Shown here: piece after piece, positions 11,347 through 47,982 of the stretch
How positions within the stretch are numbered: position 1 is the first letter of the stretch
Layout: each line of letters starts with the position of its first letter
Assembly: GCA_002401485.1 (NCBI GenBank)
Contig: NVTF01000003.1
Coordinates: 1-53,194, forward strand
Source of the DNA: Elusimicrobiota bacterium
Lineage (GTDB): Bacteria > Elusimicrobiota > Elusimicrobia > UBA1565
DNA: 53,194 nt
Direction: 5' to 3'
Notes under the pieces: generated by a model
The model's input: the letters and a program-made list of their open reading frames with translations, nothing else
Databases searched by the model: none
Told to the model about the DNA's origin: nothing
Position numbers and translations under genes: made by a program

Positions 11347-12236
11347 TAGAAACCCATGCCCCCGTCTTGGAAAATATTCTTCATCATCGGAGCCAGCATC
11401 AGGATAAAGACCGTCGGGAAAATAAAGAGGAAGATCGGAATCAGCATTTTGGTGGCGGCTTGCGCCGCCGCTTTTTCCGCCGCGTTCATACGGCGAAAAC
11501 GCATATCGGACGCAAAATTCCGAAGCAAATCAACGAGACTGGTTCCGAGTTCATCGGACTGCACGATCAGCCCGACAAAGGAACGTACATCCTGAAGCCC
11601 CGTGCGCATCGCAAGCCGGCGCAGCGCGTCACGGCGGGAATAACCTAACGAGATCTCCTGAATTGTCCGCCCCATCTCAACTTCAAGCTCGGACTTTACC
11701 CGCGCCGCTTCGATGATGCGTTCAAATGCCGCCATATAATCCAGACCCGATTCGATCGTGAGTGCGGCAAGATCAACGAAGGCGGGGAAATTGCGAATGA
11801 TGAGACGCTGGCGTTCTTGAATTTTGCTTTTGTTAATGAAATCAGGCAGGAAGAACCCGGCCGGGGCGAGGAACAAAGAAAACTTCCAGTCTTCGGTTAG
11901 CGCATACATAAACCCGAACAGCAATACCGCTCCGATCTCCTTGATGTGAAGAATATTGAGCGGCGTCGGTTTTTCGGGCTTGCCGAGCAGCATGTGGGTG
12001 AGTTCGATTTTGGGGCCGAACTTGCAGGTTTCAACGAGAAAAATATCGAGTCGTTCTATGAGACTGCCGCGCGGGTTTAAACTCTCCCAGGGCGAAATAT
12101 CCCCGGGGCCCTTCGGCGCAATGCGCGCCAACGAACTCGAGTCCTCTTCCGGCGGCTGGACGAGGCGGAGCACGAAGGTAAAAATAGCCATCGATCCCAG
12201 CATGCCGATGATGTAGAGAAATATCGGAGAGCTCAT
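11346..12236 (-). CDS. tadC: Tad pilus inner-membrane platform protein TadC
   Basis: 296 residues, normal TadC length. TM near the N-terminus (PIFLYIIGMLGSMAIFTFVL), a second membrane pair around 105-135, then the T2SSF/GspF-type domain (RNFPAFVDLAALTIESGLDY; LGTSLVDLLRNFASDMRFRR) and a C-terminal TM (LIPIFLFIFPTVFILMLAPM). With TadB it forms the inner-membrane platform that transmits ATPase motion to pilin polymerisation. It overlaps tadB by four bases (12233-12236) and the next TPR gene by one, so all three are coupled. Confidence 0.93.
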   Translation of the reverse strand: MSSPIFLYIIGMLGSMAIFTFVLRLVQPPEEDSSSLARIAPKGPGDISPWESLNPRGSLIERLDIFLVETCKFGPKIELTHMLLGKPEKPTPLNILHIKEIGAVLLFGFMYALTEDWKFSLFLAPAGFFLPDFINKSKIQERQRLIIRNFPAFVDLAALTIESGLDYMAAFERIIEAARVKSELEVEMGRTIQEISLGYSRRDALRRLAMRTGLQDVRSFVGLIVQSDELGTSLVDLLRNFASDMRFRRMNAAEKAAAQAATKMLIPIFLFIFPTVFILMLAPMMKNIFQDGGMGF

Positions 12237-13750
12237 ACCTGAATATCCGCGAGTTTTCTCACGATCCCCATTCCGATGGTCATCCAGATAACGCAGAACA
12301 AGAAGGTCAAGAGGCCCAGCGGCGAGAAGTAATAATCATTCATCACCTTGGGCTCAAACATCCACATCAAAGCCATCATCACCCACGGCATAAAACCGAC
12401 CACAAGCGCCTGGATGCGCTGCTGCGCCGTCAAGGATTGGGCTTTTTCTTCAAGTTTTCCCTCATCCCGTATGTTCTCAACGATACGGTCGAAAATTTTC
12501 GTGAGATTACCACCGACCGAACGCTGAATGATGACCGCCTTGATCATGTAGGACAACAGGCGAGACATCACGCGATCCTCCATGCCTTCCAATGATTTCT
12601 CAAACGACGTTCCCAGCTGGTAATTCTTGATCACCAGTCCGAATTCCTCGGAAATCGGCGGCACAAGGTCGCGCTGCACCATCTCAAATCCCTGAACAAT
12701 ATCCAGACCCGACTTCAGAGCGTTGGACAGCAAAATCATCGCGTCCATGAGTTGGGATTCGACCTGTTTTCCGCGACGGTAGCGAACCGCTTCCAGTACC
12801 CACTGGGGTAAATGCATGCCGACATAGGACCCAACGCCAACGAGAAAAATAAAGCCCCAAATATTCATCGTCAGCGCACCCATCAAAGCCCCAAATACAA
12901 TCGGCCCAAACACCATATACTGCACCTTCACCTTCATAAACTGTCGATTAAACTCATGCGCCCATACCCTCGAGGCCTCGAGGCGGGTGTCAATTTTCCC
13001 GGTAATCCATTTCGCGTTGAGCGCGCCCAAGCTCCACCCGGCAACAAACAACAAACCAACACCGATAATTTTCATGATCATCGGCGCGGCGCGATGGGTC
13101 TTATTCTCAGGGGACTCTCCAGGATCAAAACCGCGCGGGGCCTTATGCAGAACATGATACGACTGCTGCGTCAGCATGCCGATCGACATCACCGATTCCA
13201 CGTACAATTTTGGATCCTGGCTCGTTAACGCGTCGAGCACGGAATCCATTTCTTTGAGCATCAAATCAAAACTCGCGATCACCGAACGCCCACGCCCGCC
13301 GAGCGAATCCCCCAGCCGGGCACGATAGAGACGGTCCAGCGCCATCTGAAAACGTACACGACTGTCCTCGTAATCCTTGATCAGCGCGTAGGGCGGCGTC
13401 AGGCTTCCGTTAAATTCGGCGGGGAAGGTTTTACGCGTGTGCTCGAAGAACTCGTAGAGGACCGAGACCGGCGCCTGCCACAGTTGCGCTTCGTTCAGAA
13501 CCCCCTCTTCCGGGTCCTGCCAGACCGCGCGCTGCAGCATGCCGGGCAGTACTTCATCGACCCATTTCGGGGGAGTCAATGCCGGATCCCGGTCCGGCTT
13601 AAAATAGTGGTAGAAAAATTGCGCGCGCGCTTCGGCCCCCGTATTGGGATCAATGAGCGAATTGATTTGTTGGCGGCTAAATCCCTGGGCGGACGCATCG
13701 ATAGCGGCAAACCCGAAAAGCAGGACGATCGAAATGAGAATCTTCTTCAT
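12233..13750 (-). CDS. tadB: TadB platform protein with an extra N-terminal exported domain
   Basis: 505 residues, about 180-200 more than a usual TadB. The C-terminal 280 residues are a normal TadB: two TM helices (MVFGPIVFGALMGALTMNIW...), the T2SSF domain (LMDAMILLSNALKSGLDIVQ; RSVGGNLTKIFDRIVENIRD) and two final TM helices. Added in front are a signal peptide (MKKILISIVLLFGFAAIDASA) and about 200 mostly helical residues, then an extra TM (IIGVGLLFVAGWSLGAL). The extra domain should lie in the periplasm. It matches no family I know; it might contact the secretin, which here lacks its periplasmic domains. The start overlaps the ATPase stop as ATGA. Confidence 0.9.
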   Translation of the reverse strand: MKKILISIVLLFGFAAIDASAQGFSRQQINSLIDPNTGAEARAQFFYHYFKPDRDPALTPPKWVDEVLPGMLQRAVWQDPEEGVLNEAQLWQAPVSVLYEFFEHTRKTFPAEFNGSLTPPYALIKDYEDSRVRFQMALDRLYRARLGDSLGGRGRSVIASFDLMLKEMDSVLDALTSQDPKLYVESVMSIGMLTQQSYHVLHKAPRGFDPGESPENKTHRAAPMIMKIIGVGLLFVAGWSLGALNAKWITGKIDTRLEASRVWAHEFNRQFMKVKVQYMVFGPIVFGALMGALTMNIWGFIFLVGVGSYVGMHLPQWVLEAVRYRRGKQVESQLMDAMILLSNALKSGLDIVQGFEMVQRDLVPPISEEFGLVIKNYQLGTSFEKSLEGMEDRVMSRLLSYMIKAVIIQRSVGGNLTKIFDRIVENIRDEGKLEEKAQSLTAQQRIQALVVGFMPWVMMALMWMFEPKVMNDYYFSPLGLLTFLFCVIWMTIGMGIVRKLADIQV

Positions 13751-19052: not shown

Positions 19053-20036
19053 TTAGAACTTCATTTTCAGCGATAACATATCCGCCGTACCCAGAGAACC
19101 CAGCGAAACCAAGGCATAATCGAAGGCAATCCCGTACCCAAATGCCTGAGCCGTAAACAGTCCGACACCAAACGAAAGCTTAGGGGAGCCGACCAGAGGG
19201 TATAATCCGCTCCGATCATCCTCAAGAACCCGGCCAAGATCATCGGTGCTATGAAACCCCACCCGCAAATACACCTGACCCACTTGCAAAAGGTCCTCGG
19301 GCAGCATAAATTCCGCGCCAAGTCCGAGTCGCGCGGAAGAGTCTGACGCGTTGGACAATTCCATGGAAATGGTCAGCAATTCAAAGAGACGCACCGACGC
19401 GCCGCCGCGGGTGACCGACGCTACCCGAGAGTTTCCTGACCCGAAATTCTGCGTTGCAAATCCAAATGTGACATAGGAGTTGGGCTTTAACAAGGCCCCG
19501 AAATCCCCGACAATCGTGTCGTGGATCGTCCCATCATTGTCTTCATGAATCGCCTTGAGACTCGCTCCGAAGAAGAGTTTTTCATACCAGAAGGAACGCG
19601 CCGCGCTCAGCGTGAAAAATCCGTTCTGGACACGAGCCTCGGTTCCGTTTAAGGGGACTCCATTGCCATCGCGCACTTCAAATCCATCGATCGTGATGTA
19701 GCCCAGATTGGCGCCGAAAACGGTGCGGCCCAACGGATGAGCGTACGCCATGAAGACGGGAGAGTCGATCTCCTGGATATAGCGCAAATAAGAATACGCG
19801 AATTCCCTCTGCTGCGTCAGAGCGAGTCCGGCGGGATTCCAGGTCATCGCTTCCGATCCCTCGGCGAGGGCGACATAGGCACGCCCCATCGCCAGCGCGC
19901 GCGGGCTCCCTATGCCGATTTTCATGAATGAGGCGCCGCTCGTTCCTGCCGCAGCGTCCTGAGCATGCACGGCCGGTGCCGCCGCCGCGGCGGCGGCGAA
20001 GAACGTGAGGCTCAAAAGAACGCGTTTGCTCATCAT
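19053..20036 (-). CDS. PorV/PorQ-family outer-membrane barrel protein
   Basis: 327 residues with a signal peptide (Ala-rich core ending AVHAQ). The mature N-terminus has the PorV/UPF0164 pattern: GASFMKIGIGSPRALAMGRA, then EAMTWNPAGLA. The rest is barrel-like, ending in LSLKMKF with a terminal Phe as in many outer-membrane barrels. PorV proteins act in type IX secretion, carrying or attaching cargo at the surface. The gene overlaps the upstream 1122-residue FlgD-repeat protein by four bases (ATGA), and that protein has a T9SS-like C-terminus. The pair may be cargo and carrier; whether a full type IX machine exists is not visible here. Confidence 0.85.
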   Translation of the reverse strand: MMSKRVLLSLTFFAAAAAAAPAVHAQDAAAGTSGASFMKIGIGSPRALAMGRAYVALAEGSEAMTWNPAGLALTQQREFAYSYLRYIQEIDSPVFMAYAHPLGRTVFGANLGYITIDGFEVRDGNGVPLNGTEARVQNGFFTLSAARSFWYEKLFFGASLKAIHEDNDGTIHDTIVGDFGALLKPNSYVTFGFATQNFGSGNSRVASVTRGGASVRLFELLTISMELSNASDSSARLGLGAEFMLPEDLLQVGQVYLRVGFHSTDDLGRVLEDDRSGLYPLVGSPKLSFGVGLFTAQAFGYGIAFDYALVSLGSLGTADMLSLKMKF

Positions 20037-23000
20037 GGTATCAGCAGCTTCTTCACAACCTGGAATAATCCCTTCGATCCTCTATTGGTTTCTTGACGTA
20101 CGACGAAGAAATAAACACCGTGAGCCACCGGACGCCCTTGCTGATTCGTTTTATCCCAGAGAAAATTAATGAAGCTGTCCTCGGCCTGGGTCCCAAATTC
20201 TTTAGTCAGAATCAAATCCCCCGCAAGATTAAAAATCTTCAGCGACACGGTCGCCTGCAGCGGGGAATAGATGCGGAAGGTTGCATTGGCACCGCGAATC
20301 GGGTTGGGGAATACAAAGGTATTGTTGACGAAATCCGCCTGAGGGTTTTGAGAGCCTCCCCGGACTACCGGGATTTCGGCGATTATGAGGTCTTCGGCAA
20401 GAGCCGCCCCGGGAGCGATATCTCCGGTGATCGCATTGATCGCGGCGATATCGGTCGATCCGACAATCTTAAAGATGTAGTTGCCGTCGGGGACGATCGC
20501 CAAGGTCTCGTCCGTTCCGTCCCAAACCTCGGTTGTTTCGGTACGCGCGGGACGCACCCCTATAATTCGCTTAATGAGCGATTGTGATTCCGGCGGCGTC
20601 GGGTTTCCATTATTGTCAAAGGTCGTTCCCGGCCTGAATATTTTCACCGCAACCCGCATGGTCTCCGAGACCTGATAGGCGATCAGCGCCGTTCCGAAAT
20701 CAGCGCGAAGCGGACTGACCGCGACGTCATAAATACGAAGCGGATCCACCGAAATCGTCTGTTGGGCCGTCGATCCCGAGGACAACACCGACGCCAAATC
20801 GTCGGCCACGGCGCGAACCGTATAGAATCCGGGTTCCACAAAATTCCCACCGTCATCACGCGCGTCCCAGAATTCCCTGTTCAAAATTCCCGAGTCGCGC
20901 ACCTGCCCCAAAATCAAGGTCCGCACCGTCACGGGCGAAGAATTGGTTGTTAGGATTGAAATTGTCACTGAGGATTGACGCGTCAGGGAATAATCGACTT
21001 CATACGGCGGCAGCGAAATGGTTTGACTGGAGTTAAACAACGTCGGGAAGGTCGGGGTGATGCTGAAAACCGGGAAAACAATTGACCCGCGGGCGACTGT
21101 CAAAGCCCCGGTCACCTGATCAGTGGCAAAAAAACGAGGCGTGGTGGTGGACTCCGCGACCAAGGTGTAAATATAGGTGCCGTCGGGAATAAACAGGCCG
21201 TTAGAATCGCGCCCATCCCAAAATTCCGTAATTCTCAGCCGGCCCGGGCGCATGCCTTTAATCGATATAAGGGGCGCTACAGAATTACCCGAGTTTACGA
21301 TTTGCCCGCACGCGCCCCCGGGGTCCAGGACTCCGCACGGAGGCCACGTAGAGGAGGAGCCTTGAATCGTCGTCCCCGGCGGATAGATATTCCAAACGAT
21401 GTTCATCGGCTGAGAAAGCTGATAACTGATGGTCACGACATCGGTAGCGCCCGTTAACAATGGAGAACCCGATACATCCGTAATGCGAAATAAATCGACC
21501 GGGAAAAGTGCGGTCGTTGTTGATATTTTCGCAGGAAAAAACGGATCAGACGCGGTTAGCTGGATCAAATAGGTTCCAGAAGAAACAAATCCACCGGTAT
21601 CATCGGTGGGTATCAGCCACCGTTCCCGGTTTAAGAAATTTCCCGGGCGGACCTGATTATTGATCAGTGTTTTGATGAGATTTTCGCCGGTACTGTTGAA
21701 AATCTTGAGCGAAACAAACGCCTCGCGCGACAACGAGTAGCTGAATGTAAAGGGATCCAATCCAGCAACCGGGGGCGAGGACCCGATGACGGTAGATGCC
21801 GGACCGACTTGCGAAATCGTCACAAGCCCGCGATTGATCGAGAGAAATCCGCTGCGTGCGTTGGTCGACCAGACGCGTCTGTCGGACGCGACCCCGTTAA
21901 AGGGAACGCCGTTTTGTGAAGGCAAGGACGCATAAAGAACAAATACGTAGTTGCCGTCGTCCATAATCTTTCCGTTCGAATCCCGGCCGTCCCAAAAACT
22001 GATTACGGGTTTTCGGAAGTCCTGTTGTTCCTCAAGATGGCGCACCAACGGCTGGGTCGGGCCGAAATTCTTATGCACCCCTTGATTGGCAGCAGGAGGC
22101 AAATCCGGAATAATGGTCGGGTCATTGACATTATTCAAGCCATTGGTAAACGCGGTTCCGGGAGGGTAAATATCGATAAAGACTGTCGCGGGTTCGGTTA
22201 GCAAATAACTCAGGACGGCAAGAGACGTCGATTGCTCCGTCAACGGCTGCACGCGAATATCGGTAATTTGAAGTGTATCGAGCGCAATCTGCCGCGTCGT
22301 TGCCACGCTCAGATCCGCTCCGAATTCATCGAGCGAAAATGACTGCAGCGTGGCAAGATAGACGCCGGGAGGACCGAGATCCCCGTTTTCGAAACGCCCA
22401 TTCCAGGAATCCCCGTTTTGCAGCGTGCCGGAAGGAATGCCCTCACCCACGCGCGGCAACCCGTTGACGACGTGGCGAATAAAGGCTCCATCGCCCTGCA
22501 CGACGGAGAGGAACATCGTCGCGTCTTTCGCCAATCGATAGGTGATGTTGTAGGGCTCCGCCGCGACACCCGTAAGCGCCCCAACCACCGTCGGAGAGGT
22601 TCGCACCACATGCACATCCGTCACATCGACGATGATTGGCTTTTCATCAACAACGGCATTATTCTCGTCCTTCGTGAACCCGCCCGGATAGGCACGGGTT
22701 TGTGTAATATTGATGTTGCCGCTCGCGCCGGTCTGATTGGTCGCAACCGTTGCGCGAAACCCAAACTGCCCGTTTGATTTACCGAATTCCCCCTGAATAT
22801 TGATGGACCCGTCCCACAGGATGCACATCGGGACGCAGGCCGTGCCGGCGCCCGGACAATCGTTTGCCGAATCCGTGCCCGCGGCTATGAAACCCGGGTT
22901 ATCAACGAAAAATGTTCGAAGCGGTGGAGTTGATTCCGGCGCGAGAGGGTTTGACCCGGGAGCGAATTTGAAAATTTCGAATGATACGAAGTCGAGCGCG

Positions 23001-23401
23001 AAGGCGGAATTGCCGGACTGGGTGTTGGCCCAACCGACCTTCGCGCACAGGACAAGGCGATTATTGCAGAAATTATTATTGATCGTGCCGCTGGGCAATG
23101 GAGTCACCGGACAAGCCGGATCCACTGTCTGAGCGAATTCGATATGGGGGTTGTTGGATAGGTTGCCCGCGCTCGGAAGCAGCGGCCGGTTGATCCCATT
23201 GCCGGTACACGTCAGACGCGAAGTGCCGGCGGGCACCGCGCAAAGCGCCGGATCATTAACCCACAGCCCGTCGATAAATACCTGCTGCGCAAACGGAGTC
23301 GTGACCGCGAATAAAAGCACCGCAACAACAGCAAAGGGTTGCGCGGCGCCAATTAGCGCACGCACAATACCAGCTTTAGAGCGGCTCTGTAGTCGAATCA
23401 T
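20033..23401 (-). CDS. Large secreted protein with about seven FlgD-like Ig repeats
   Basis: 1122 residues with a signal peptide (AVVAVLLFAVTTPFAQ). After a Cys-containing N-terminal region come about seven copies of a FlgD-like Ig signature W-D/N-G-x-D-x-x-G-x(4)-G-x-Y. Examples are FWDGRDSNGKIMDDGNYVF, FWDGRDSNGLFIPDGTYIYT, FWDARDDGGNFVEPGFYTV and VWDGTDETLAIVPDGNYIF. The final copy (LWDKTNQQGRPVAHGVYFFV ending KKLLIP) closely resembles the C-terminal type A signal of type IX cargo. It is probably a surface or extracellular structural protein, perhaps an adhesin. It is coupled to the PorV-like gene and directly precedes the pilus locus. Confidence 0.85.
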   Translation of the reverse strand: MIRLQSRSKAGIVRALIGAAQPFAVVAVLLFAVTTPFAQQVFIDGLWVNDPALCAVPAGTSRLTCTGNGINRPLLPSAGNLSNNPHIEFAQTVDPACPVTPLPSGTINNNFCNNRLVLCAKVGWANTQSGNSAFALDFVSFEIFKFAPGSNPLAPESTPPLRTFFVDNPGFIAAGTDSANDCPGAGTACVPMCILWDGSINIQGEFGKSNGQFGFRATVATNQTGASGNINITQTRAYPGGFTKDENNAVVDEKPIIVDVTDVHVVRTSPTVVGALTGVAAEPYNITYRLAKDATMFLSVVQGDGAFIRHVVNGLPRVGEGIPSGTLQNGDSWNGRFENGDLGPPGVYLATLQSFSLDEFGADLSVATTRQIALDTLQITDIRVQPLTEQSTSLAVLSYLLTEPATVFIDIYPPGTAFTNGLNNVNDPTIIPDLPPAANQGVHKNFGPTQPLVRHLEEQQDFRKPVISFWDGRDSNGKIMDDGNYVFVLYASLPSQNGVPFNGVASDRRVWSTNARSGFLSINRGLVTISQVGPASTVIGSSPPVAGLDPFTFSYSLSREAFVSLKIFNSTGENLIKTLINNQVRPGNFLNRERWLIPTDDTGGFVSSGTYLIQLTASDPFFPAKISTTTALFPVDLFRITDVSGSPLLTGATDVVTISYQLSQPMNIVWNIYPPGTTIQGSSSTWPPCGVLDPGGACGQIVNSGNSVAPLISIKGMRPGRLRITEFWDGRDSNGLFIPDGTYIYTLVAESTTTPRFFATDQVTGALTVARGSIVFPVFSITPTFPTLFNSSQTISLPPYEVDYSLTRQSSVTISILTTNSSPVTVRTLILGQVRDSGILNREFWDARDDGGNFVEPGFYTVRAVADDLASVLSSGSTAQQTISVDPLRIYDVAVSPLRADFGTALIAYQVSETMRVAVKIFRPGTTFDNNGNPTPPESQSLIKRIIGVRPARTETTEVWDGTDETLAIVPDGNYIFKIVGSTDIAAINAITGDIAPGAALAEDLIIAEIPVVRGGSQNPQADFVNNTFVFPNPIRGANATFRIYSPLQATVSLKIFNLAGDLILTKEFGTQAEDSFINFLWDKTNQQGRPVAHGVYFFVVRQETNRGSKGLFQVVKKLLIP

Positions 23402-33164: not shown

Positions 33165-34469
33165 TTAGCCGTCGCTGACGGTCAGACTGCTGAGCACTTC
33201 GCGTGCCTTGAGAAGTTCGAGCGCACGGTCGAGAACGGTATCCCTAATCTGTTTTTCTTTATCCACCGCGGATTCGCCACCCTTCCCCTTTTCGAAGATC
33301 ATTTCGCCTTGAGCCTGTAATTTAACCTCGGCTTCACGCGTCACAGTCACCGCGAAGTCGGGAGAAATGCCTCCCGTCTTCTCTTTCTCATTGCGTTGAA
33401 TGCCCCGCCCCGCCGGCGTGTAGTACTTTGCCACGGTTAAGCGAAGACCCGATCCATCCGAGAGAGGAATCACAGACTGAACACTTGCTTTCCCGAAAGA
33501 ACGTGAGCCGACGATCACCGCACGCTTATGGTCCTGCAGGGCGCCTGCAACGATCTCACTTCCGGATGCCGATCCGCCGTTAATCAGTACAACCATCGGC
33601 AGGTAGGAATACGGAGAGCGTGATCCTGCGCGGAAATCCTGACGATTCTCTTTCGCGCGTCCTTGCGTATAAACGATTAATCGATTGTCCCCCAAAAAGA
33701 AAGAGGCGACATCAACGGCGGCCGTCAACAACCCTCCTGGATTATTGCGCAGGTCCAGCACCAGTGACGTGGAGCCGGCCTTCTTGAGCTCCCCCAATGC
33801 AGTGACCGTATCATCGGCCGTGTGAGCGCTGAACTCAAGAATTTTGACGTATCCCGTTTTGTTTTCAAGCATGCGGGATTGAACGCTCTCAATTTTAATG
33901 ATCTCGCGCGTGATCGTAATTTCATGAGTCGACCAATCATGTTCCTCCACGTCCGGGGTATTATCGCGAGCCACGGTAATTTTAATCTTGGTCCCCGGCT
34001 TACCGCGAAGCTTGGTCACCGCCTCGGTCAGGGTAATCCCCTTCGTACTATCCTCTTCAATCTTAATGATGCGGTCCTGGGGCAACACCCCGGCCTTGTA
34101 CGCCGGTGTACCGGGTATCGGCGTGATTACGGTTAACCATTGCTCCCGCATCCCGATTCGGATTCCGAGCCCGCCGAACTGCCCTTCCGTTTCAGTTTTG
34201 ATTTCTTTATGAACCTTCGGCTCCATGAACTGCGAGAACGGATCCAGGGTTCCCACCATGCCCCTAGCGGCTCCGCGCACGAGGTCTGTACTGTCGATCT
34301 CTTCGACGTAGTTTTCCTTGATATAGTCAAGAACATCAACAAGAACCTTGAGCTGCTCATAGGTATTATCCGCAGCGGCATACGCGCGCGGAAGCAACCA
34401 TACACCTAATGCCGCCAAACAAACCGCTACTGTGATCGTCTTAAATTTTTCTCGCAACGCCGCTTTCAT
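33165..34469 (-). CDS. C-terminal processing peptidase, S41 family (CtpA-like)
   Basis: 434 residues. N-terminal signal or anchor (TVAVCLAALGVWLLPRAYAA), a helical segment (YIKENYVEEIDSTDLVRGAA), PDZ domain about 95-175 (GLGIRIGMREQWLTVITPIP), then the S41 core. Catalytic residues are visible: Ser in INGGSASGSEIVAGAL and Lys in GSRSFGKASVQ. It is a periplasmic serine protease that trims or degrades proteins, often controlling cell-wall hydrolases. GGGAG six bases before the ATG supports the start. It follows the FtsX-EnvC fusion by 18 bp, matching the widespread order ftsE-ftsX-envC-ctpA. Confidence 0.95.
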   Translation of the reverse strand: MKAALREKFKTITVAVCLAALGVWLLPRAYAAADNTYEQLKVLVDVLDYIKENYVEEIDSTDLVRGAARGMVGTLDPFSQFMEPKVHKEIKTETEGQFGGLGIRIGMREQWLTVITPIPGTPAYKAGVLPQDRIIKIEEDSTKGITLTEAVTKLRGKPGTKIKITVARDNTPDVEEHDWSTHEITITREIIKIESVQSRMLENKTGYVKILEFSAHTADDTVTALGELKKAGSTSLVLDLRNNPGGLLTAAVDVASFFLGDNRLIVYTQGRAKENRQDFRAGSRSPYSYLPMVVLINGGSASGSEIVAGALQDHKRAVIVGSRSFGKASVQSVIPLSDGSGLRLTVAKYYTPAGRGIQRNEKEKTGGISPDFAVTVTREAEVKLQAQGEMIFEKGKGGESAVDKEKQIRDTVLDRALELLKAREVLSSLTVSDG

Positions 34470-34487: not shown

Positions 34488-36443
34488 TTAACGTTTACTC
34501 ATGCTGGTGCTTCTCAAATATAGGGAAGGGTCGAACGCCTTCCCGCCCTGACGAAATTCAAGGTACAAGCGGCCGCGTTTACCGTCAACAGACGCGAGGA
34601 CCGTTCGTGTACTGACGCGATCCCCTTTTTTCCGGCGCAACCCGGATAGATGGCCGTAAATACTATAGAAACCGCGCCCATGGTTCACGATAATGACATT
34701 GCCATAGGAGCGGAAAGGACCTGCAAAAATGACATCGCCAACACTGACGGGGCGAACTTCCGCCCCCTTACGAGCCGCAATATCGATACCGTTATGTATC
34801 GTCCAGGTTTTCAGCTCGGGAACCCGCCGTTTCCCGAATTTTTCCACAACCGGTCCCAAAACAGGCGCCGGTAAAGACCCTTTCGAAAGCCATGGCGTCG
34901 TTGATTGGATTTTGCCTTTTTTCGCGGAGCGTTTCGTTAAATCCCGGATCAGACTCGCAAGTTGGCGCGCAGACGACTCCAACGACTTGAGAAGCTTCTC
35001 AGCCCGCGAAGCGCTCTTGGAAACCGTCTCGACCGCTTTCTTGCTTCGCTTGAGTTTGCTGTCCTCTTTCTGCAGACGCTGGATTTCGCGGCTCGCTTTT
35101 TTCTGAATCGAATCGACCCGCAGCACCGCCTTCTGGCGAGCCCCGATGGAATCGGCATCGATCATCCGCAACTGCGTCAGATAGAGAACCTTTTCCCGGA
35201 TCGCGCCCCGACGCAATGCTTCTTCCCAGAGAGCGCCGCTATCGTAGAACGTATCGGCGCCCTCCGATATGCGGCGATACCCTTCAACCTCTTCTCCGAT
35301 CAATCTGCGGCTTTCATTGCGGGCGATCGAAAGCGATTCCAACTTTGAATCCAGCAAAACGCGTTCGTTATCGAACTCCCGAAAGCTCTCTTTGAGCTCT
35401 TCGACACGCGACGCCGTGGTTCGACGCTGCCGCTTCAAGAGTTTAAGGTGTTCCTGCGCCTTGTTCTTTTCCCGCCGAATCGCACTCACGGTTTTTTTCT
35501 GATTTTCCAGTTTTATGGTCACGTTTTTCAGTTCGCGCCGTTTCGAGCGCACCGATGCAGCCTCAAGTCCAGACGCCGGCAAAAGCAAGGACGCTGCCGC
35601 CAAAACCGCCACATTCTGACGCCGCTCGCGACCCGAAAACGGATTCCAACGTGCGCCCTTGATTTCGGGTAATGACGCCGCAACCCCGCCAAGCGCCGCA
35701 CCCACCAGCAACCCGCACCGGGCGATCCAAGATACCGCCCCCATAATCAGACCCTCCGAAGCCGGACCCGCAAGCGCCGCGGCGGCGGCGGCACCGATCA
35801 GCGCTCCCGACGCTGAGACACCGCCTCCAATCAAAAGTTCCCGTCTAATTTCTTTAGTGAAGGTTCGGCCCGATCGCAAGAATCCCAGGAAACACCATGC
35901 GATCCATAACGCGATCGTTGCGACCGCGAGTGAAATCACGATATTTGCAAACCGTTCATAAAACCGCATTTGCATGAGAGCACGAACCTGATAAGGCTTA
36001 AAAACAACTTCTTCGACTTCTTCAAAATCCCGAACACGCTCAGCCCAAACAGGCAAGGACCCGATCGCCGCGTCCTTCAATTCAACTTCGAATGCCCCCG
36101 GGAGTGGGTTTTCACCCATGAGGGCGACCGAACGAAACACGGTAGGGTCGCGTGCTTCGATGCGCGCCAACGCGTCTTCGGGAGAAACATACACCGCTCG
36201 CTCAGTTCCCGTGAGCGCGGAAATTTTTTTCCCTACCTCAACCGCCCGGTCATCATTAATCGATCCTTCAAGAAAAACAATTATTTTTAAATCCAAGAAA
36301 AGCGATCGCTCCGCCTCAGCCGCATGGGCGCGAAAAAAGAGCAGGCTCTCAGCAAACAGTCCCCCAACAAGGCCTACCACCAAAAGCGAAATTGGCCAGC
36401 GAAATGAGTTATTTTTCATCGTTATCGAATTACCATCAAACAA
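34488..36443 (-). CDS. FtsX-EnvC fusion: division permease joined to amidase activator
   Basis: One open frame of 651 residues. Residues 1-265 are FtsX: TM1 17-38, periplasmic domain 45-160 with the FtsX hallmark ENPLPGAFEVEL (111-122), and TM2-TM4 at about 165-189, 203-226 and 231-258. Residues 277-296 (NVAVLAAASLLLPASGLEAA) look like a signal peptide inside the protein. Then comes EnvC: a long coiled coil (300-510) and a LytM domain (about 525-645). H550 and D554 are kept (HNGID), but the final HxH is replaced in GRLYLEFRQ, as in EnvC, so it should activate amidases rather than cut peptidoglycan. ftsE is not adjacent. The start is a TTG with GGAGG six bases upstream; an in-frame ATG at 36419 lacks a ribosome site. 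Confidence 0.88.
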   Translation of the reverse strand: MFDGNSITMKNNSFRWPISLLVVGLVGGLFAESLLFFRAHAAEAERSLFLDLKIIVFLEGSINDDRAVEVGKKISALTGTERAVYVSPEDALARIEARDPTVFRSVALMGENPLPGAFEVELKDAAIGSLPVWAERVRDFEEVEEVVFKPYQVRALMQMRFYERFANIVISLAVATIALWIAWCFLGFLRSGRTFTKEIRRELLIGGGVSASGALIGAAAAAALAGPASEGLIMGAVSWIARCGLLVGAALGGVAASLPEIKGARWNPFSGRERRQNVAVLAAASLLLPASGLEAASVRSKRRELKNVTIKLENQKKTVSAIRREKNKAQEHLKLLKRQRRTTASRVEELKESFREFDNERVLLDSKLESLSIARNESRRLIGEEVEGYRRISEGADTFYDSGALWEEALRRGAIREKVLYLTQLRMIDADSIGARQKAVLRVDSIQKKASREIQRLQKEDSKLKRSKKAVETVSKSASRAEKLLKSLESSARQLASLIRDLTKRSAKKGKIQSTTPWLSKGSLPAPVLGPVVEKFGKRRVPELKTWTIHNGIDIAARKGAEVRPVSVGDVIFAGPFRSYGNVIIVNHGRGFYSIYGHLSGLRRKKGDRVSTRTVLASVDGKRGRLYLEFRQGGKAFDPSLYLRSTSMSKR

Positions 36444-36468
36444 AAAGGACCTCCGTAGTCTGGAGGTC
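36442..36468 (-). terminator. Stem-loop with U tract overlapping the ribosome site of ftsX-envC
   Basis: GACCTCC (36448-36454) pairs with GGAGGTC (36462-36468) around a seven-base loop, and five U follow on the minus strand. It has the form of an intrinsic terminator for the gene at 36574-37872. However, it lies downstream of the 36482-36510 promoter and its descending arm holds the GGAGG used by the TTG start. It may act as an attenuator or ribosome-site lock. Confidence 0.6.
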
Positions 36469-36481
36469 GGCGCACATAGAC

Positions 36482-36510
36482 AAAATAGCCGCCAAATAGG
36501 CAGTTGTCAA
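36482..36510 (-). promoter_or_regulatory. Strong promoter of the ftsX-envC/ctpA/tsaD operon
   Basis: Minus strand TTGACA (36510-36505), perfect 17-base spacer, TATTTT (36487-36482). The -35 is a full consensus match. Transcription would start near 36475, only about seven bases before the stem-loop at 36448-36468. Confidence 0.75.
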
Positions 36511-36573: not shown

Positions 36574-37872
36574 CTAACGAAACGCGGACATTCGACGCCT
36601 TTTACGCCGCTTCCGAGACGCTAATTGCAGCAGCAGCCACGCCCCAATCAGCATGACGGGGAGATAGGTCGGGTTGTCATTAATAAAAAAAGAGGCTAAT
36701 TTCGCATTCGGAGACCGCTGAGGCTTCTTCGCACGCCGGACCATAGGCATTTTCTTCGGGGCAGGCATCACCTTTACGACCGAAGGGTCCGCCATCACAA
36801 GCGAGAGACTCTCAACTGAAACACTCCCTGAGATCACAACCGCCAACTTATCCGTGCCTGGGATTTTCTGATAGGCGAGCGCCTTCTTAAATCGAAACCC
36901 CGTCCTCCGACCCAGACGCCGCAGCGTTGTCCGTACGATTTCATTAGGCGAGACTTCCGATGGGATGCGAACACCGATCAGGATCTCGGTTTCAGCCGGA
37001 ACTCCGAATTCGGCAGGCGGCTTATTGCTTCGATGCGTCTGCACACGGAGTACCTTATCCGAACGCAGCAGCAACGCGGATTGGCCGGCGGGAACAAAAC
37101 CGCGAATACTAACACGTGTTTTTTTCTCGCCGTAATATTCAGCAGCCGCACTCGGGTCCCGCTTAAATGCGCTGGCAGGAAGTGTACGTAGAACGGCCCA
37201 TGCATCTCCGGGAGAATTCTCTAAATCCAATTCAAGGATGACGGCACGCATGCCTTTGGGAGTGAAGGTCCGTGGTTTCATTTCGGGAGCGGCCACCGCA
37301 CCATCAGCGCCGATTCCAGCGCCTAAAATTTTGTTCTCATAATCGATTCGACCCAAGGTCCGAGCCTGTGAAACAGAGACAGAATCGATCTGATGCGCCG
37401 GCAGCATCATCGGCTGACTCAGTCCGGACCAAAGAGAATACGCTCTCGCATTGAGGGCCGCAGGGGCATCCCGCAAATCCTCGGCCTCTTCCACTTCGAT
37501 CTCCGCTCGGGGGGTAATGCGCCGGATTCCGGGCCACACCTTCGCGGGTCTCTTCGCGTCGCGCTCGGGAAGCGGCCACGGGGCATGCGCCGCCTGACCC
37601 GCACGAACAGTCTCTGGAAACTTATCCCACTGCTCGTTGCGCCGTGAGGCGGTAGAACCCCGCTCATAAACAGGATTAACAGCCGGCTCTATGGAATCGG
37701 TCGGGTTCTCACCTTGCTGGCGAGCCCAACTCTCCTGATGGTCGGAGACTTCAGGTGAAATTTCATAGGGTTGGTTCGGATTTTCACCGAAAAAACTGGC
37801 TTGAAAATCAGCGGCGGCCGCGGGAATGCCAAAACCCAGGAATGCGGCAGCCATCAAAGGTCCCATTTTCAT
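36574..37872 (-). CDS. Secreted protein of unknown function with C-terminal membrane anchor
   Basis: About 432 residues from the ATG at 37872. Signal peptide (MAAAFLGFGIPAAAADF), then a long polar, Pro/Glu-rich, probably disordered region (about 25-150). A folded part follows (about 175-370) with patterns such as MRAVILELDLENSPGDAWAV and RVSIRGFVPAGQSALLLRSD. The end is a tail anchor: YLPVMLIGAWLLLQLAS followed by RKRRKRRR. The C-terminal hydrophobic plus basic cluster recalls sorting signals, but no conserved cleavage motif precedes it. No family is recognised. It is alone between glgA and the ftsX-envC promoter. TACAAT at 37881-37886 with TTGATT 19 bases upstream would place transcription right at the ATG. 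Confidence 0.72.
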   Translation of the reverse strand: MKMGPLMAAAFLGFGIPAAAADFQASFFGENPNQPYEISPEVSDHQESWARQQGENPTDSIEPAVNPVYERGSTASRRNEQWDKFPETVRAGQAAHAPWPLPERDAKRPAKVWPGIRRITPRAEIEVEEAEDLRDAPAALNARAYSLWSGLSQPMMLPAHQIDSVSVSQARTLGRIDYENKILGAGIGADGAVAAPEMKPRTFTPKGMRAVILELDLENSPGDAWAVLRTLPASAFKRDPSAAAEYYGEKKTRVSIRGFVPAGQSALLLRSDKVLRVQTHRSNKPPAEFGVPAETEILIGVRIPSEVSPNEIVRTTLRRLGRRTGFRFKKALAYQKIPGTDKLAVVISGSVSVESLSLVMADPSVVKVMPAPKKMPMVRRAKKPQRSPNAKLASFFINDNPTYLPVMLIGAWLLLQLASRKRRKRRRMSAFR

Positions 37873-37928
37873 ATAGGCCCATTGTACCACACCATGGAAC
37901 GGCTAAATCAACCAATTTTCAGGTATTT

Positions 37929-46797: not shown

Positions 46798-47982
46798 ATG
46801 CCCTGGAAGGAGACTTGTGTGATGAATGAAAAACGTAAATTTATATTGGATTGGCTATGTGGGGATTGGACTATGCTTGCTCTTTGTGAGCATTTTGGAA
46901 TAAGCAGAAAGACGGGTTATAAAATCCTAGGTCGTTTTAAAGTAGAAGGCTTGTTGGGTTTGGAAGCACGCTCAAAAGCACCTGTGAGGCATCCAAACGA
47001 AACCGCGGAGGAAATTCAATTGGCAGTGTTGGCGCAGCGTCGCAAGCATCCGTATTGGGGTCCCCGAAAACTTCGGCGTCGCTTGCAGGATTTGTATCCG
47101 AAAGTCGCGTGGCCTGCGGCGAGCACGATAGGGACTCTTCTGAAACATAAAGGACTGTCGCGTCCCCGTCGCCGTTCACGACGGGTATCGATTTATTCGG
47201 GACCGTTTGACCTTGGTTTAGAACCCAACGATGTTTGGGGTGCCGATTTTAAAGGCTGGTTCCGTACGGGCGACGGTTTGCGAATCGATCCTTTTACCGT
47301 GAGCGACCTTGCGAGCCGCTATTTACTGTTATGCAGGGCTGTAAAAAGGCCCGACGGGGAAAACGTGCAGGACCATTTGACGGGGTTGTTTCGTGAGTTC
47401 GGTCTTCCGCAGGCATTACGCACTGACAATGGTTCCCCGTTTGCATCATTAGGTGCCGGGGGTCTATCGAAATTATCAATCTGGCTAATCAAGTTAGGAA
47501 TTCGACCGGAACGGATTCGTCCGGGACACCCTGAAGAAAATGGGATTCACGAGCGTATGCATAAGACGCTTAAGCAAGAAACGGCGAATCCACCTAAAGC
47601 TAACGAATCGTCTCAGCAACGTGCCTTTGACCGTTTTGTTGCGGAATACAACGATGAACGCCCGCACGAAGGGTTGGAGATGAAAACCCCGACACAGATC
47701 TATCGGACCTCGGAGCGTGATTTTCCATCTCGTTTACGGGAGCTGGAGTATCGATCCCCAATGAGCGTACGCAGAGTGTCTTCAAATGGAACGTTTAAAT
47801 GGCGACGGAAATGCGTTTTCATTGGCAACGCCTTAGTTGGAGAAACGATCGGAATTATGGAGGAAGAATCAGGGACCTGCCGAGCTTATTTTGGGCAGAT
47901 TTACCTTGGGGAATTTGATCAAAATGAGGCAGGAAGTACGTCTGTCACGGGGAGCAGGGTGTTACCTATGTGCCCGGTCTAA
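46798..47982 (+). CDS. IS481-family transposase (DDE integrase core)
   Basis: 394 residues. N-terminus MPWKETCVMNEKRKFILDWL and ALCEHFGISRKTGYKILGRF form the helix-turn-helix typical of IS481. The rve integrase core has the DDE triad: Asp in VWGADFKGWF, Asp in ALRTDNGSPFASL, Glu in PEENGIHERMHKTLK. A C-terminal region with CVFIGNALVGETIGI ends the protein. Frame intact, so it may be active. AAGGAGG eight bases before the ATG supports the start. The stop lies inside the right inverted repeat. Confidence 0.95.
   Translation: MPWKETCVMNEKRKFILDWLCGDWTMLALCEHFGISRKTGYKILGRFKVEGLLGLEARSKAPVRHPNETAEEIQLAVLAQRRKHPYWGPRKLRRRLQDLYPKVAWPAASTIGTLLKHKGLSRPRRRSRRVSIYSGPFDLGLEPNDVWGADFKGWFRTGDGLRIDPFTVSDLASRYLLLCRAVKRPDGENVQDHLTGLFREFGLPQALRTDNGSPFASLGAGGLSKLSIWLIKLGIRPERIRPGHPEENGIHERMHKTLKQETANPPKANESSQQRAFDRFVAEYNDERPHEGLEMKTPTQIYRTSERDFPSRLRELEYRSPMSVRRVSSNGTFKWRRKCVFIGNALVGETIGIMEEESGTCRAYFGQIYLGEFDQNEAGSTSVTGSRVLPMCPV

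What the first reader, a model, noticed from the sequence alone, without database searches (positions are those of the whole stretch)
34488..36443. FtsX and EnvC fused into one polypeptide with an internal signal peptide
One frame carries a full four-helix FtsX including the ENPLPGAFEVEL hallmark, then a signal-peptide-like segment (277-296, ending near SGLEAA), then an EnvC coiled coil and degenerate LytM domain. FtsX normally recruits a separate EnvC through its periplasmic loop, driven by FtsE. Here the activator is covalently attached, or released by signal peptidase as from a polyprotein, and ftsE is not adjacent. The gene order with ctpA downstream matches the classical ftsE-ftsX-envC-ctpA cluster, so this looks like a true joining of neighbours.
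Basis: partly seen in the sequence, partly recalled or inferred. Interest (0 to 1): 0.75.

Follow-up and report, generated by a model that had tools for sequence, protein, structure and literature searches.

The report
Fused FtsX-EnvC protein without FtsE
In one bacterial family, two cell-division proteins that are normally separate, a membrane anchor (FtsX) and a cell-wall-cutting switch (EnvC), are made as one chain, and the ATP motor that normally drives them (FtsE) was not found anywhere in 199 sampled genomes of the same phylum.

Summary
Window 34488-36443 (-) is one open frame joining an FtsX-type periplasmic domain with four membrane helices, a signal-peptide-like segment, and an EnvC-type coiled coil plus degenerate LytM domain. 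It is not an assembly error. The same joined frame occurs, without internal stops, in 7 of the 8 held genomes of the family (four genera, down to about 31% identity); the eighth is cut by a contig end but reads through the junction. Other families of the order, class and phylum keep ftsX and envC as separate neighbours, so this is a family-level gene fusion. The reading needs two changes. First, the FtsX part is not a canonical FtsEX permease: it lacks the permease domain (PF02687), the TM2-TM3 coupling segment that grips FtsE is shortened or lost, and no FtsE was found in 199 genomes across the phylum. FtsE is missing, not merely non-adjacent, and this predates the fusion. Second, the internal signal peptide keeps its A-x-A signal-peptidase site (the -1 Ala is present in all eight), so release of EnvC from a polyprotein is somewhat likelier than a permanent tether. 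Signal peptidase I and an AmiC-like amidase are encoded. Cleavage and activity need experiments.

The parts
34488..36443 (-). Fused ftsX::envC gene (TTG 36443, 651 aa; or ATG 36419, 643 aa = P0001)
   Evidence: same frame in six other genomes of the family
36336..36386 (-). TM1 core (residues 12-28 of P0001), starting almost at the N-terminus, so no long cytoplasmic N-terminal part
   Evidence: hydropathy
36006..36287 (-). FtsX periplasmic domain, PF18075 (residues 45-138), with ENPLPGAFEVEL
   Evidence: fold match 6tpi_B
35676..35942 (-). TM2-TM4 (cores 160-176, 201-217, 232-248); short TM2-TM3 link, no separate coupling helix in the model
   Evidence: no PF02687 match
35559..35630 (-). Internal signal-peptide-like segment RERRQNVAVLAAASLLLPASGLEA (264-287); predicted signal peptidase I cut after Ala287
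   Evidence: sequence; Ala at this column in all family members; orthologous to the N-terminal signal peptides of separate EnvC proteins
34977..35507 (-). EnvC-like coiled coil (residues 305-481)
   Evidence: AF2 helices 305-387 and 394-481; PDB profile match to EnvC chains
34527..34799 (-). LytM / M23 domain (541-631), degenerate: the HxH zinc motif is replaced (RLYLEF)
36482..36510 (-). Promoter-like TTGACA-N17-TATTTT in front of the fused gene, also present in the other genome of the genus
36448..36468 (-). Leader hairpin GACCTCC-N7-GGAGGTC followed by a T run; its 3' arm contains the ribosome-binding GGAGG of the TTG start
   Evidence: stem-like counterpart in G001
33165..34469 (-). ctpA (S41 C-terminal processing protease), next gene downstream
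36574..37890 (-). Conserved neighbour of unknown family (438 aa; N-terminal signal and C-terminal hydrophobic segment by eye)
   Evidence: no Pfam/NCBIfam match; syntenic through the order, weaker in other families of the class

Best explanation
The gene is a genuine, family-specific fusion of neighbouring ftsX and envC. It encodes a precursor that inserts N-in with four membrane helices and a periplasmic FtsX domain. It then re-enters the translocon at an internal signal peptide, which places the EnvC coiled coil and LytM domain in the periplasm. Signal peptidase I probably cuts after Ala287, giving equal amounts of an FtsX-like anchor and free EnvC, which can rejoin through the FtsX periplasmic domain. 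The LytM domain is a non-catalytic activator of an autoinhibited AmiC-like amidase. FtsE was not detected in this phylum and the FtsX part lacks the coupling segment, so the anchor works without ATP-driven opening: it positions EnvC at the septum rather than actively switching it. Shown: the fusion, its conservation, the domain make-up, no detectable FtsE, missing PF02687 and shortened coupling segment, retained A-x-A. Inferred: cleavage, septal localisation, amidase activation, ATP independence.
For: Fusion: seven full-length fused frames in four genera, none with a stop; separate adjacent genes elsewhere with the same synteny. FtsE-less: 0 of 199 phylum genomes reach E 1e-70 while 98 of 199 have FtsX_ECD; the same FtsE search rings in 7 of 14 controls. 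Two representative candidate ATPases (own genome, G004) match MacB and LolD models above FtsE, whereas E. coli FtsE scores 311.7 bits on FtsE. Nearly all candidates inspected sit beside MacB/LolC-type permeases; in the single-contig genome G090 only one MacB and one LolD reach E 1e-45. Coupling: E. coli FtsX matches PF02687, members here do not reach its cut-off; TM2-TM3 core spacing is 55 and 52 residues in two canonical proteins, median 35.5 here. Cleavage: A-x-A retained, -1 Ala invariant; signal peptidase I encoded. Target: AMIN + Amidase_3 protein with an insert of about 40 residues, best NCBIfam match AmiC. LytM HxH motif lost in all aligned sequences.
Against: No cleavage was measured. 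A home-made site matrix did not single out the junction, and one TM2 column among 140 control columns is as Ala-rich as the cleavage column. The window's own site has Leu at -3, which is weaker than in its relatives. The FtsE model is not perfectly sensitive: Bacteroides has FtsX_ECD but no FtsE above the strict threshold, so a very divergent FtsE could be missed. The own genome is only 78% complete. One FtsX (G022) has no shortened TM2-TM3 spacing (56).
Confidence: 0.6

Rival explanations
1. Permanent tether: the signal-like segment is an uncut fifth membrane helix, so EnvC stays covalently attached to FtsX and each anchor carries its own activator.
For: One polypeptide by sequence; hydropathy gives a fifth segment in all seven full-length proteins; with no FtsE to drive opening, a fixed link would be functionally cheap.
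Against: The -1 Ala is the only invariant residue between 220 and 296 and -3 is Ala or Gly in all but the window's protein, at the position where separate EnvC proteins end their signal peptides. The hydrophobic core is short with Gly/Pro near its end, as in cleaved signals. AF2 gives no confident helix there, which is inconclusive.
Confidence: 0.3
2. Ordinary FtsEX: a diverged or shared ATPase (for example the LolD or MacB ATPase) energises this FtsX, so only gene order and fusion are unusual.
For: FtsX_ECD, EnvC, FtsA and a regulated amidase are all present; the own genome is 78% complete; the FtsE model misses at least one control that has FtsX. The window's EIRRELLIGG vaguely recalls the pneumococcal coupling peptide ISREIQIMRLVGA (PMC7468199).
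Against: No FtsE in 199 genomes; the FtsE-like ATPases in the single-contig genome are accounted for by their own permeases; PF02687 not met; the coupling-like residues are not shared by other family members.
Confidence: 0.12
3. Artefact: a sequencing or assembly indel joined two separate genes.
For: Draft assembly in 191 contigs; single window.
Against: Same fused frame in six further genomes of the family, four genera in all.
Confidence: 0.01
4. The LytM domain is an active endopeptidase rather than an activator.
For: The window's protein keeps HxxxD (542/546) and the YGH histidine (590).
Against: The HxH zinc motif is Y-L or Y-F here and in the relatives aligned (H-L in one separate EnvC, G056); D and the other H are lost in most; closest folds include the EnvC LytM domain bound to AmiB.
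Confidence: 0.04

Closest known systems
FtsEX-EnvC-AmiA/B amidase activation system (E. coli, V. cholerae, P. aeruginosa)
   Same: FtsX periplasmic domain, EnvC coiled coil and degenerate LytM domain, an AmiC-like amidase with an insert encoded in the genome
   Different: FtsX and EnvC in one frame; no FtsE found; no PF02687; shortened coupling segment
FtsX-like proteins next to EnvC in the rest of this phylum (separate genes)
   Same: Same FtsX type without PF02687 or FtsE, same gene order
   Different: Two separate genes, EnvC with its own N-terminal signal peptide
Bacterial polyproteins cut at an internal signal peptide (from memory: fbcH cytochrome b/c1 of Bradyrhizobium; not found in the paper library)
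   Same: Membrane protein followed by an internal signal peptide and an exported partner in one gene
   Different: Respiratory complex, not cell division; processing here is predicted only
FtsEX-independent control of RipA in Corynebacteriales (PMC9897464, title and abstract only)
   Same: Septal hydrolase control without FtsEX
   Different: Different proteins; no FtsX-EnvC fusion

Membership tests
FtsX (permease of FtsEX) | FtsX extracellular domain PF18075 above cut-off | tested here: met
   47.9 vs 23.5 bits; fold match 6tpi_B
FtsX (permease of FtsEX) | Four membrane helices, ECD between TM1 and TM2 | tested here: met
   hydropathy; AF2 helices
FtsX (permease of FtsEX) | FtsX-like permease C-terminal domain PF02687 | tested here: not met
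   no match in P0001 or G001; E. coli FtsX 53.3 bits
FtsX (permease of FtsEX) | Coupling helix between TM2 and TM3 | tested here: not met
   spacing 41 vs 55 (E. coli); TM2 142-182 and TM3 189-220 joined by a short turn in the model; a weak EIRRELLIGG resemblance remains in the window's protein only
FtsEX | FtsE ATPase partner | tested here: not met
   0 of 57 relatives over cut-off; 0 of 199 in phylum; candidates MacB/LolD-like
EnvC | Coiled coil followed by LytM domain with lost zinc ligands | tested here: met
EnvC | NCBIfam EnvC model above its curated cut-off | tested here: not met
   55.9 vs 270 bits; I take that cut-off to be set for close relatives of the E. coli protein, so I call this EnvC-type, not a certified EnvC equivalog
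EnvC | Activates an autoinhibited amidase | not testable with these tools
   a candidate amidase with insert exists
Signal-peptidase-processed polyprotein | Internal signal peptide with -3/-1 site | tested here: met
   small-x-Ala (AxA, GxA) in seven of eight, L-x-A in the window's protein
Signal-peptidase-processed polyprotein | Cleavage in the cell | not testable with these tools
   needs Western blot or N-terminal sequencing

The most novel reading that the evidence does not exclude
A whole phylum runs the FtsX-EnvC amidase switch without FtsE, as an ATP-independent anchor, and one family has gone further by encoding anchor and activator as a polyprotein of fixed 1:1 ratio that signal peptidase splits.
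Probability: 0.45. Interest if true: 0.8.

Novelty: new variant of a known kind. Interest (0 to 1): 0.62.

Why it matters
FtsEX is described as an ATP-driven switch that opens EnvC so that septal amidases act. A lineage that keeps the FtsX periplasmic domain and EnvC but has no detectable FtsE, and an FtsX without the FtsE-coupling segment, would show that localisation alone can suffice. That makes the question 'what is ATP hydrolysis for in FtsEX?' testable by comparison. The fused form fixes a 1:1 ratio and offers a natural single-chain construct for structural work.

Tried and rejected
A signal-peptidase site matrix trained on 24 separate EnvC proteins was too Ala-biased to separate the junction from membrane helices; not used. 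AF2 with only the seven fused sequences gave low confidence (mean pLDDT 65.8) and no helix at 241-293; not used to decide tether versus cleavage. The genome-contig scan returned only distant Clostridia M23 matches, so no named organism was obtained. A second FtsX in G009 (contig C257, with an intact coupling motif RDEISAMELAGAS) was considered as a counter-example but looks foreign to the clade (it aligns only over the periplasmic domain), so probably contamination; used only as a canonical comparison. Literature searches found no FtsX-EnvC fusion paper and none on FtsX without FtsE in this phylum; most subscription journals are not in that library.

Full report
What is there. The - strand frame at 34488-36443 is one uninterrupted ORF. 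Translated from ATG 36419 it is 643 residues (P0001); a TTG at 36443 preceded by GGAGG would add eight residues and is the better-supported start. Pfam gives FtsX_ECD (PF18075) at 45-138 and Peptidase_M23 at 541-631. Profile searches against PDB sequences and a fold search with an AF2 model (mean pLDDT 82.4, pTM 0.48, so relative domain placement is not reliable) both find EnvC and FtsX chains of the solved FtsEX-EnvC complexes.

The fusion is real and belongs to one family. Searching the 8 genomes held for the family gave full-length, stop-free fused frames in seven (G000-G004, G006, G007; about 31-54% identity to the window's protein). In G005 the two halves lie at contig ends; the envC frame continues upstream through the signal segment into FtsX-tail sequence, and the ftsX fragment has one TAG where G002 has Tyr. 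In the other families of the order and class, ftsX and envC are separate, mostly overlapping or abutting ORFs in the same neighbourhood, scpA-scpB-glgA-(~550 aa)-up438-ftsX-envC-ctpA-tsaD. In the more distant members of the phylum whose loci were read, envC lies beside ftsX as a separate frame in all but one (L124, where no envC was seen in the short flank).

The FtsX part has lost its ATPase connection. E. coli FtsX matches both PF18075 and PF02687; the window's protein, its congener and representatives of other families match PF18075 only, with one sub-threshold PF02687 hit in a distant family. NCBIfam FtsX models align only through TM2. The TM2-to-TM3 core spacing is 55 residues in E. coli and 52 in another canonical FtsX; here it is 24-46, median 35.5, in 30 of 31 sequences (G022 gives 56; for G004 I took the later of two candidate TM3 peaks) and 23 in a distant family. 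The coupling helix between TM2 and TM3 is the main FtsE contact (PMC11139282; PMC7468199). The model shows TM2 and TM3 joined by a short turn.

FtsE was not found. None of 57 relatives nor of 199 genomes spread over the phylum has a TIGR02673 match over the cut-off, while 98 of the 199 have FtsX_ECD. The control set rings for FtsE in 7 of 14 genomes, but Bacteroides has FtsX_ECD without passing, so sensitivity is good rather than perfect. Two representative top candidates match MacB and LolD models better than FtsE; E. coli FtsE does the opposite. Most candidates inspected are followed or preceded by MacB-, LolC- or other FtsX-like permeases; the remainder are lower-scoring or of another ABC type. 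In the one-contig genome G090 only two ATPases reach E 1e-45 and both have such partners. FtsA and signal peptidase I are present.

The EnvC part is a degenerate LytM activator. In all sequences aligned the HxH zinc motif is altered, to Y-L or Y-F in all but one; the window's protein is unusual in keeping HxxxD and the YGH histidine. Every one of 38 relatives has Amidase_3 proteins; the own-genome one on contig C18 is an AMIN-Amidase_3 protein with about 40 extra residues inside the domain, as expected for an inhibitory insert, best NCBIfam match AmiC. That the insert is inhibitory is an inference from the E. coli amidases.

Tether or polyprotein. Topology (four helices, then a positive stretch RERR, then a short hydrophobic core ending in A-x-A) puts EnvC in the periplasm either way. 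The -1 Ala is the only invariant residue between positions 220 and 296 in the seven fused proteins; -3 is Ala or Gly in six and Leu in the window's protein. G005 has ARA at the same place. Among 140 control columns in TM1-4, one is equally Ala-rich, so the pattern is supportive, not conclusive; its location was fixed beforehand by the cleavage sites of separate EnvC proteins, which strengthens it. I put processing at about two to one over a permanent tether.

Taxonomy. From genome sizes and family structure I think the phylum is Elusimicrobiota, but that is recollection and was not tested.

Regulation seen on the way. The fused gene has its own promoter-like site and a leader hairpin that contains the GGAGG; both have counterparts in the other genome of the genus.

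Noticed in passing
36448-36510 (-): Promoter-like TTGACA-N17-TATTTT followed by a terminator-like hairpin whose 3' arm contains the ribosome-binding GGAGG of the TTG start; similar promoter and stem in congener G001. Possible attenuation or translational control.
   Followed up: partly
36574-37890 (-): Conserved 438-aa protein of no known Pfam or NCBIfam family, just upstream of ftsX in most order members read and weakly recognisable in other families of the class; candidate partner of the FtsX-EnvC module.
   Followed up: partly
L106 (G009 contig C257): A second FtsX with an intact FtsE-coupling motif in one genome, probably a contaminant contig.
   Followed up: partly
20033-23401 (-): 1122-aa protein with a C-terminal FlgD_ig / CHU_C-type domain.
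   Followed up: no
46798-47982 (+): IS481-type transposase.
   Followed up: no
12233-13750 (-): Type II secretion / pilus assembly protein F domain.
   Followed up: no
L044, L045, L053, L055, L058, L061: Family members carry HlyD-ABC-MacB permease export modules, which supply the best FtsE-like ATPase hits.
   Followed up: no
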